Shown here: positions 61,109 to 64,000 of the stretch, piece by piece | Numbering within the stretch: the first letter of the stretch is position 1 | Layout: each line of letters begins with the position of its first letter | Origin: a bacterium BMS3Bbin13 | GTDB taxonomy: Bacteria > Pseudomonadota > Gammaproteobacteria > 21-64-14 | Direction: 5' to 3' | Length of the DNA: 64,000 nt | Assembly (NCBI GenBank): GCA_002897735.1 | Contig: BDTW01000025.1 | Span: forward strand, 62,001-126,000 | The notes under the pieces: model-generated | The model's input: only the letters and a program-made list of their open reading frames with translations | Database searches by the model: none | Told to the model about the DNA's origin: nothing | Translations under genes and position numbers: made by a program

Positions 61109-61184
<76 letters not shown>

Positions 61185-61342: not shown

Positions 61343-61365
61343 TCTTTAATTATTCGCCCGTGGCT

Positions 61366-62658
61366 ATGCTGATCGAATTCAACGTCGCCAATTTCCGCTC
61401 GTTCAAGGATCGTCAGTCCTTGTCTCTGGTCGCGAGCAGCGGCTCCGAACACCGTGAGCAGAACGTGTCGACCACCGGGATCGCCGGTCTCGACCTGCTG
61501 CGAACTGCGGTTCTGTACGGTCCCAATGCAGCCGGCAAGAGCAACCTGTTCCATGCGCTACGCGCGCTGCAAGTGCTGGTACAGTTCTCTGCCACGGCCC
61601 TGCAGCAGGGGCAGGTGTTGCCCGGTGTGAGTCCTTATCGGCTCACCAAAGACTCGGCGGAGGGTCTCACTGAGTTCGAAATCAGCTTCATCGCCGATGA
61701 TGGCGTGCGCTACCAGTATGGCTGTGCGGTGCGCCCGGAGCGCGTAGTCAAGGAGTGGCTCATCGCCTATCCACACGGTCGGCCGCAGCGCTGGTTCGAG
61801 CGCGACCATACGAGCAAGGACGGCAACGTCTGGTGGTTTGGACCGAACTTCGACGGGGAACGGGCGCAGCGCAAGGTCTGGCAGGACTCTACCCGCGACA
61901 ACGCGCTGTTCCTCTCCACCGCCATCCAGCTTAACAACACCCAGTTGCGGCCGGTTTTCGTATGGCTGACGGAACGGCTGATTGTCCTTGCACCGGGGAC
62001 CAACATGAACCCGTTTCTCAGCCTTGAGCTGCTCAAGTCGGCGGATGGGCAGCGGCGCATTATGGAGTTCATGCATGCGGCGGATATCGACATCGACCGC
62101 ATGGAACTCAAGGAGGAGGACATGCCCACCTCTTCCGAGCCGACTGCGCCGGGCATGGTCCAGCTGCGGATCGAATCAGGCATGCCACCGGGAATCGAAG
62201 CGCCACAGATCAAGCAGTTCCGTATACTCGCCTGGCACAAACGCAAGGACGACGGCCGAGCGGTTGCCTTCGACTTCGGCGAGGAATCCGCCGGCACCCG
62301 AAAATTATTCGAGTTTGTTGGTGGCCTGCTGCGTGCGATGGACTCCGGGGCCGCCGTCTGCATTGATGAGCTGGATCGCAGCCTGCATCCGCACATCACG
62401 CGGTACCTGGTCGAGCTGTTTCAACATCCCGGTAGTCAGCAGTCTGCGCAGTTGCTGTTCAGCACGCACGACGTGACTTTGATGAATGTCGATCTTCTGC
62501 GGCGTGACCAAGTCTGGTTCGTCGAGAAGAAGCCGCAGGACGGTTCGTATCTTTATCCTTTGCTCGAGTATTCGCCACGCAAGGGCGAGGCGCTGGAGCG
62601 AGGTTATTTGAAGGGTCGCTATGGGGCCGTTCCGGTCACCGGAATGACGGCGCGGTGA
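61366..62658 (+). CDS. AAA-family ATPase of an RloA/AbiL-like defence pair
   Basis: 430 residues from ATG 61366 (a GTG two codons earlier is possible). ABC/SMC-like ATPase of the AAA_15/AAA_21 type: it opens MLIEFNVANFRSFKDRQSLS, has Walker A GPNAAGKS at 52-59, Walker B AVCIDELDRSLHPH near 327-340, and the switch histidine in LLFSTHDV. Such ATPases pair with RloB-family proteins in phage-defence and restriction-linked loci (RloA, and the AbiL system as I recall). The next gene is RloB-like, the start overlapping this stop as GTGA. Position next to tRNA-Lys suggests an island. Confidence 0.87.
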   Translation: MLIEFNVANFRSFKDRQSLSLVASSGSEHREQNVSTTGIAGLDLLRTAVLYGPNAAGKSNLFHALRALQVLVQFSATALQQGQVLPGVSPYRLTKDSAEGLTEFEISFIADDGVRYQYGCAVRPERVVKEWLIAYPHGRPQRWFERDHTSKDGNVWWFGPNFDGERAQRKVWQDSTRDNALFLSTAIQLNNTQLRPVFVWLTERLIVLAPGTNMNPFLSLELLKSADGQRRIMEFMHAADIDIDRMELKEEDMPTSSEPTAPGMVQLRIESGMPPGIEAPQIKQFRILAWHKRKDDGRAVAFDFGEESAGTRKLFEFVGGLLRAMDSGAAVCIDELDRSLHPHITRYLVELFQHPGSQQSAQLLFSTHDVTLMNVDLLRRDQVWFVEKKPQDGSYLYPLLEYSPRKGEALERGYLKGRYGAVPVTGMTAR

Positions 62659-63300
62659 CGCGCGGCACGAGGTGGACAAATCCGGGGAGTTCGCTCTTTC
62701 AGGCGCAGACCTGGGCGCAAACCGCCCCGATCCATTACCCTCATCGTCTGTGAAGGTGAAACGGAGCAGGCCTATTTCAATGCGGCCCGTATCCACTATG
62801 GCTTGAGTACCGCCGAGGCCCTCGTCGCCGATAACACAGTCGGATCAGCGCCCATCAGCGTTGTCCAATGTGCCGAAGCAAAGAGCAAAGAACAGGGAGG
62901 ATATGACACGATTTACTGCGTGTTCGACCGCAATGGGCATGAGAGCTTCGCGCGGGCAAGGGAGCGGATTCGTGCGCTGGCTGGGCGCGTGAAAAATCGA
63001 TTACCCGTGTACGAGGCCATTTCGATTCCCTGCTTTGAGTTCTGGGTACTGCTTCATTTTGAGCGAACTGCCGCCCCATTTTCTCGCTGCGACGATGTCA
63101 TTCGTAGAGTCAGGGACCCCAGGTACATGCCGAATTACGCAAAGGCGGATGCTGCGATCGCAAGGAGGCTCATGGGGCGGATTAATCGTGCGTTGGAAAA
63201 CTCGGAGTGGCTGGAAAGAAATGCGGAGGACAGCAACCAAAACCCGTTTACCACGGTTCAACGTGTGCTTCGTCACTTTAAACAGGTTGCCCAATCGTAA
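62655..63300 (+). pseudogene. RloB-family protein with an apparent +1 frameshift
   Basis: The best reading starts at GTG 62655, overlapping the ATPase stop (GTGA), and runs MTRGTRWTNPGSSLF to about 62699. One base must be skipped (around C62700) to continue RRRPGRKPPRSITLIVCEGE and on, through ETEQAYFNAARI, to the stop at 63300: 214 residues in all, near the family length. The conserved nucleotide-binding or Toprim-like motif IVCEGETE lies upstream of any ATG/GTG/TTG in its own frame; the only later start (TTG 62803) would delete it. So it is a frameshifted gene, a case of programmed +1 shifting at TTT-C, or a sequencing error. The C-terminal part is otherwise intact (DTIYCVFDRNGHESF, IPCFEFWVLLHFE). 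Confidence 0.75.
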
Positions 63301-63452
63301 ACACGCCGCATAACCTGCAAGAAAAAAAGCACTCTGACCCCTTGAACACCCCTTAGAACCACGACCGATCTGGCGGTACGGTCTCATCCGCAATAAAATG
63401 CGCGGAATCCGAAGGTCCGCCGCTTGGCTCCTGCTTTCGTGTGGCCCATCGA

Positions 63453-64000
63453 TCAGGGGCTCGGGGTGCCGGGCCGGTGATCGATCGATTCCGGCGCACA
63501 CCGCAAAAGCCGGCGCTTGATCGTGGGCCGCAAGAATTCCATGTCCGCCTCCGGTACGTCGTAGGATCGGAAGACCGACTCCCAGTTTTCCACGGCCCGA
63601 TAGACCTCCTCGATCGTGCCCATCATTCGGGCACTCGAAAGTCCCGTTTGACGCCCGAGTTCGATCAGCGCCGCATAATCCGGGCGGTTGCCGCGCAACC
63701 CGAAGCTCAATACATGTTCTTCGCGGCGCATCACGTCCGGCAGCAGATCATAACCGGGGGACAGACGCCAGCCCCGGGCATCGTGTAGCATCGAGAAGTT
63801 CTTGAGATGATCGTCGGTATTCCCGACCATGGCGTTGAAGACCGCTTGGCGAAAGATCCCCATCAGATCCGTTTGTGGCCGATCGGATACCCGGCGCAAG
63901 ACCTCGGCGATGTCCGCGTAGCCGAGATTGTAGAAATTCTCGGCCCCCAACAAGGTGGCCAGGCTGATCCGGTGATAACGCCCCCCGGAGGTGGCCGGAT
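63453..64000 (-). CDS. HipA-family serine/threonine kinase, C-terminal part
   Basis: 182 codons of a gene whose start lies beyond the right edge. GGRYHRISLATLLGAENF and the catalytic block VFNAMVGNTDDHLKNFSML (N and D of the kinase loop), then WRLSPGYDLLPDV, are HipA signatures. HipA toxins phosphorylate GltX and cause growth arrest or persistence; HipB would be upstream and is not visible. It faces the RloB gene. The 152-bp gap between them holds an A-rich run and no gene. Confidence 0.88.
   Translation of the reverse strand, partial: PATSGGRYHRISLATLLGAENFYNLGYADIAEVLRRVSDRPQTDLMGIFRQAVFNAMVGNTDDHLKNFSMLHDARGWRLSPGYDLLPDVMRREEHVLSFGLRGNRPDYAALIELGRQTGLSSARMMGTIEEVYRAVENWESVFRSYDVPEADMEFLRPTIKRRLLRCAPESIDHRPGTPSP

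What the first reader, a model, noticed from the sequence alone, without database searches (positions are those of the whole stretch)
62655..62805. RloB reading frame broken by one base, conserved motif lying in the wrong frame
The RloB motif ITLIVCEGETEQAYF lies in the same frame as the ATPase, after the ATPase stop and without any start codon. A GTG overlapping that stop opens another frame whose N-terminal peptide fits RloB until about 62699, where a +1 shift at CTC-TTT-C is needed. Either phase-variable or programmed expression, recent inactivation of a defence gene, or a sequencing error.
Basis: seen in the sequence. Interest (0 to 1): 0.7.

Follow-up and report, generated by a model that had tools for sequence, protein, structure and literature searches.

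The report
Phage-defence effector gene missing its start
Next to a tRNA gene sits a two-gene AbiL-type phage-defence unit whose second gene (the putative growth-inhibiting RloB part) has an intact, conserved body but no usable start codon, so it is most likely a recently silenced ordinary defence gene rather than a new kind of frame-switching gene.

Summary
The raw observation holds. The RloB body (62680-63300) is open, in the frame of the upstream AbiLi ATPase, and has no ATG/GTG/TTG between the ATPase stop (62656-62658) and the motif ITLIVCEGETEQAYF. A GTG (62655) overlapping the stop opens another frame. Comparison with about 50 homologous operons changes the interpretation. In three close relatives (64-69% identical), and in a fourth that is itself broken, RloB starts with ATG one codon after the ATPase stop, in the ATPase frame. 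The window has GCG there. Window frame-1 residues IRGVR (62680-62694) fit relatives' LRGSG/LRGER (p about 0.01); the GTG-frame residues do not (p about 0.3). So no slip is needed at 62699; the defect lies upstream of 62680: either the start codon was substituted, or one base is surplus after a GTG start (not separable). RloB shows no decay. Nothing argues for phase variation or programmed frameshifting. A strong Shine-Dalgarno (GAGGTG, 62669-62674) before ATC 62680 leaves near-cognate initiation open. Verdict: a standard AbiL operon inserted between tRNA-Lys and tig, with the effector's start recently lost; assembly error is not excluded. Interest is low to moderate.

The parts
61109..61184 (+). 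tRNA-Lys (anticodon ctt), last of a tRNA Pro-Arg-His-Lys cluster; left border of the inserted defence segment
   Evidence: ARAGORN; Rfam; in G001 (same genus) tig follows the cluster directly
61360..62658 (+). AbiLi-type AAA ATPase (432 aa from GTG 61360; relatives' MLIEF start corresponds to ATG 61366)
   Evidence: PADLOC AbiLi 1.2e-91; Pfam AAA_21 7.9e-39; one continuous frame
62655..62753 (+). GTG overlapping the ATPase stop and the 32-codon frame it opens; no recognisable RloB homology in its own frame
62662..62664 (+). GCG in the column that holds the RloB start ATG in L003, L034, L035, L005 (stop-NNN-ATG)
62669..62674 (+). GAGGTG, strong Shine-Dalgarno-like site 5 nt before ATC 62680 (duplex -10.4 kcal/mol)
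   Evidence: 1.3% of ATH triplets in the window have as long a match
62680..62682 (+). ATC, possible near-cognate start; also the first codon whose translation is clearly homologous to relatives
62680..63300 (+). RloB (AbiLii-like) body, 206 codons plus stop, open, conserved
   Evidence: Pfam RloB 3.9e-31; AbiLii 8.4e-24; AlphaFold2 mean pLDDT 87; no decay
62734..62778 (+). conserved motif ITLIVCEGETEQAYF

Best explanation
This is an ordinary AbiL-type two-gene unit (AbiLi ATPase plus RloB/AbiLii effector), gained between a tRNA-Lys gene and tig. The effector's translation start has recently been lost by a small change confined to the 20 or so bases between the ATPase stop and 62680: either the start codon was substituted (GCG now stands where relatives have ATG), or one surplus base separates a GTG start from the body. 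The ATPase stays intact. The RloB body has had no time to decay, and the protein is probably not made, or made only in traces. Shown: intact body, continuous frame from 62680, missing start, no visible decay, empty site in the sister species. Inferred: that it is a real mutation, that expression is lost, and that loss was tolerated or favoured because the effector can harm the cell (an AbiLii from Fusobacterium nucleatum inhibits E. coli, PMC3985639).
For: No ATG/GTG/TTG from the stop to the motif. Relatives L003, L034, L035 (and the start of L005) place ATG exactly one codon after the ATPase stop, in the ATPase frame, where the window has GCG. Frame-1 residues from 62680 match relatives (p 0.006-0.01), GTG-frame residues do not (p about 0.3). 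RloB amino-acid-changing divergence from the closest relatives (pN 0.21-0.23) is no larger than that of the ATPase (0.26), so any loss is recent. Two other homologues are also damaged at the RloB 5' end while their ATPase is one frame: L007 (start GTG changed to GTT) and L005 (frame break plus internal deletion). G001 has tig directly after the tRNA cluster.
Against: A 206-codon body that keeps the strongly conserved positions, apart from conservative changes and an N that relatives L034 and L035 share, is also what an expressed gene would look like. A strong Shine-Dalgarno sits correctly before ATC 62680. The genome is a draft of 62 contigs and no reads were available. Substitution and indel versions of the lesion could not be told apart.
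Confidence: 0.52

Rival explanations
1. RloB is still translated, at a low level, from the near-cognate ATC at 62680 behind the GAGGTG Shine-Dalgarno, giving a protein about 8 residues shorter than its relatives; the weak start throttles a harmful effector.
For: SD-like 6-mer at 5 nt spacing, matched by 1.3% of ATH triplets; -10.4 kcal/mol, equalled by 3 of 153 long ORFs. Homology begins at this codon, and the conserved I/L-S-K/P just upstream in relatives is gone. The N-terminal tail before the first strand is predicted with low confidence, as if disordered, so a shorter tail should not harm the fold. No decay.
Against: AUC is a very poor initiator in bacteria (general knowledge; the 64-codon E. 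coli study was not held). Relatives have Leu/Ile/Pro at this position as an ordinary residue, so ATC may be just Ile. One site with p about 0.013 is weak.
Confidence: 0.2
2. Assembly or sequencing error: the real gene has a canonical start in frame.
For: Draft genome in 62 contigs; a single wrong base could explain it; gene body well conserved; GC-rich, locally repetitive junction (10/11-nt imperfect tandem copy 62645-62665).
Against: HipA, tig, clpP, clpX nearby are full length. Of 54 genes compared with G001, the 9 flagged mostly trace to over-long upstream ORF ends or shadow frames and not to clear mid-gene breaks. L007 suggests that start loss occurs in this family.
Confidence: 0.2
3. Programmed +1 frameshifting or phase-variable expression from GTG 62655.
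For: GTG overlaps the stop (GTGA) and lies about 28 codons before the motif, the usual RloB N-terminal length.
Against: The proposed slip site lies downstream of codons already homologous in the other frame. GTG-frame codons score -4.3 in coding likelihood. No homopolymer longer than 4, no short-unit repeat, RNA fold z -0.12. No intact relative needs a shift.
Confidence: 0.05
4. Read-through of the UGA stop makes an ATPase-RloB fusion protein.
For: Same frame, no intervening stop other than TGA-C; the in-frame arrangement is shared by L003, L034, L035.
Against: Those relatives have their own ATG, L035 uses TAA, and L055, L056, L057 are out of frame; no fused ATPase-RloB was seen in the loci read.
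Confidence: 0.03

Closest known systems
AbiL (AbiLi/AbiLii) abortive infection system, Lactococcus lactis (Deng 1999, cited in PMC3985639 and PMC10440598)
   Same: AAA ATPase followed at once by an RloB-family protein; PADLOC AbiLi and AbiLii models match.
   Different: RloB here has no canonical start codon; proteobacterial sequence, remote from the lactococcal one; phage defence not tested.
AAA-TOPRIM/RloB toxin-antitoxin-like pairs of the NetFlax network (nodes D29/D44, PMC10440598)
   Same: Same two-gene architecture, RloB as likely toxic partner.
   Different: No toxicity data; the effector is apparently not expressible as assembled. Foldseek gave no significant solved-structure match, so the TOPRIM relation was not confirmed here.
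PARIS (AriA/AriB)
   Same: Related ATPase (PADLOC AriA 1.5e-36).
   Different: Effector is RloB (PF13707), and AbiLi is the far better ATPase match.

Membership tests
AbiL (AbiLi + AbiLii/RloB) | AbiLi-type AAA ATPase | tested here: met
   PADLOC AbiLi E 1.2e-91, Pfam AAA_21
AbiL (AbiLi + AbiLii/RloB) | RloB/AbiLii gene directly downstream, same strand | tested here: met
   PF13707 109 bits; AbiLii 8.4e-24; the ATPase was found with RloB in every other locus except L004, which is cut at its contig end
AbiL (AbiLi + AbiLii/RloB) | translatable RloB gene with a canonical start | tested here: not met
   no ATG/GTG/TTG before the motif; so filed as an AbiL-type locus with a defective or unconventional effector gene, not as an intact system
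AbiL (AbiLi + AbiLii/RloB) | phage defence or effector toxicity | not testable with these tools
   literature only: AbiLii of F. nucleatum toxic in E. coli (PMC3985639)
Programmed ribosomal frameshift gene | conserved slippery site with stimulatory element, conserved frame change in relatives | tested here: not met
Phase-variable gene | simple-sequence repeat in or before the start | tested here: not met
   longest run 4; no short-unit repeat
Pseudogene | relaxed constraint or further lesions in the body | tested here: inconclusive
   no stop, conserved positions kept, pN not raised; excludes old decay, but a very recent loss would leave no such trace

The most novel reading that the evidence does not exclude
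The RloB effector of an AbiL system is expressed from an AUC start codon placed behind a near-perfect Shine-Dalgarno, a built-in throttle on a self-harming defence protein, and weak or missing starts recur in this family (L007).
Probability: 0.15. Interest if true: 0.45.

Novelty: new member of a known kind. Interest (0 to 1): 0.25.

Why it matters
If the lesion is real, it is a small, recent example of a defence operon losing its effector while keeping its ATPase, as expected when the effector is costly. If the gene is translated from AUC, it would be a rare natural non-canonical bacterial start in a toxic gene. Either way it shows that gene callers will truncate or miss RloB here, and that a frameshift should not be inferred from the sequence alone.

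Tried and rejected
3) Deciding between start substitution and a surplus base from N-terminal peptide scores or codon usage: not resolvable (substitution version p 0.08, surplus-base version p 0.25, codon likelihood ratio about 6 for frame 1 over the GTG frame). 4) The 10/11-nt imperfect tandem copy at 62645-62665 as a duplication event: 34 similar arrays occur in the 64 kb window, so weak. 5) Closer relatives: viral, plasmid and phage collections and about 1800 genomes gave nothing above 69% identity over the full gene. 6) PDB sequence and fold searches were uninformative.

Full report
The observation. The ATPase ORF ends with TGA at 62656-62658. In the same frame the sequence is open to TAA at 63298-63300 and translates to an RloB protein (P0001; Pfam RloB 109 bits against a cut-off of 31.5). 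The motif ITLIVCEGETEQAYF is at 62734-62778. Between the ATPase stop and the motif there is no ATG, GTG or TTG in that frame. GTG at 62655 overlaps the stop and opens a 32-codon frame.

What the operon is. The ATPase matches PADLOC AbiLi at 1.2e-91 and the second protein AbiLii at 8.4e-24. An AbiLi-type ATPase, matched as one continuous frame, accompanies RloB in every other locus examined except L004, which is cut at its contig end. The pair lies directly after a tRNA Pro-Arg-His-Lys cluster. In the only same-genus genome, G001, that cluster is followed at once by tig, clpP, clpX and lon, while the window's genome has about 5.6 kb extra between tRNA-Lys and tig, holding AbiL and an intact 439-aa HipA-like gene. 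So it is a gained (or, in G001, lost) accessory segment.

Where the break is. Relatives at 64-69% identity (L034, L003, L035; also L005, which is itself damaged) have ATPase stop, one codon, then ATG, and so keep RloB in the ATPase frame; their N-termini read MVRRMSISKLRDCASFRR, MVRRTPLSKLRGSGSFRR and MARRMPISKPRDSGSFRR. The window reads stop, CGC, GCG, then ARGGQIRGVRSFRR in the same frame, three codons shorter. A further homologue, L057, has MTSRRLSALRGERSFAR. Against these, the five residues before SFRR fit in frame 1 (IRGVR, p about 0.01 by mean score, 0.006 by best score) and not in the GTG frame (NPGSS, p 0.29 and 0.25). Without L057 the same test gave only p 0.07-0.08, so the evidence is moderate. 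Three-residue windows point the other way (GSS), which I attribute to their shortness. The break therefore most likely lies upstream of 62680, not at 62699, and need not be a frame break.

Substitution or indel. Two versions remain. In one, GCG 62662 replaces the ancestral start codon. In the other, GTG 62655 was the start and one surplus base lies between it and 62680; that version restores the usual 28-codon distance to the motif. Peptide scores (p 0.08 for the first, 0.25 for the best of the second), the scores with L057 added and codon usage (likelihood ratio about 6 for frame 1 over the GTG frame, with frame 2 scoring best of all) do not decide it.

Is the gene dead? The body has no visible internal lesion. 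The one apparent catalytic change, N at 62932, is shared with L034 and L035. Amino-acid-changing divergence from the closest relatives is 0.21-0.23 for RloB and about 0.26 for the ATPase; synonymous sites are saturated, so only old decay can be excluded. Either the loss is recent, or the gene is still used. A route for use exists: ATC 62680 lies 5 nt after GAGGTG (-10.4 kcal/mol), a match as long as that found before 1.3% of ATH triplets in the window. AlphaFold2 places the N-terminal tail before the first strand at low confidence while the body is well predicted, so a shorter N-terminus should fold. Against it, AUC initiation is known to be very weak (general knowledge).

Other mechanisms. 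Phase variation needs a repeat tract; the longest run in 62655-62740 is four bases. Programmed frameshifting lacks a conserved shift in intact relatives, and the local RNA fold equals shuffles (z -0.12). UGA read-through lacks any fused relative among the loci read.

Family context. L007 has also lost its start (GTG in its 93%-identical neighbour L006 is GTT in L007), though an ATG directly before LIVCEG could rescue it. L005 has a frame break near the N-terminus plus an internal deletion. An AbiLii from Fusobacterium nucleatum is toxic in E. coli and its AbiLi did not neutralise it (PMC3985639). RloB is described as related to OLD/TOPRIM domains by HHpred in PMC10440598; my fold search did not confirm that. 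Three damaged effectors against no visibly split ATPase is suggestive, not statistically significant, and the sample was chosen mostly by RloB.

Error. The genome is a draft. Of 54 non-overlapping G001 genes compared with the surrounding 132 kb, nine were flagged; inspection points mainly to over-extended ORF starts or shadow frames, with a few left ambiguous. Errors do not look frequent, but a single-base error at this site cannot be excluded without reads.

Verdict. A real, ordinary AbiL-type operon with a start-less effector gene; recent loss of the start is the best reading (0.52), then near-cognate initiation (0.20), assembly error (0.20), frameshifting (0.05) and read-through (0.03).

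Noticed in passing
61188-66797 (window ends at 64000; continues in L064): About 5.6 kb accessory segment (AbiL pair, HipA-like 439-aa gene, a further 274-aa gene) between tRNA-Lys and tig that is absent in the same-genus genome G001 (L065).
   Followed up: yes
L007:3956-4648: Homologous RloB gene whose GTG start (as in 93%-identical L006) is GTT; ATPase intact. A second start-less RloB.
   Followed up: partly
L005:3955-4399: Accumulibacter RloB with a frame break near the N-terminus and an internal deletion, while its ATPase is intact.
   Followed up: partly
62645-62665: Imperfect 10/11-nt tandem copy (TGACGGCGCGG / TGACGCGCGG) straddling the ATPase stop and the GTG; 34 arrays of similar score occur in the window, so of weak significance.
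   Followed up: partly
63321-63359: Sequence AAGCACTCTGACCCCTTGAA after RloB recurs (91%) on contig C36, where an inverted pair of it occurs (L002:1510-1605); looks like a REP-type or transposon-associated repeat.
   Followed up: no
62932-62934: The conserved FDRD motif reads FDRN here and in close relatives L034 and L035; a clade-specific change in a motif that is D or E in nearly all other RloB proteins examined.
   Followed up: partly
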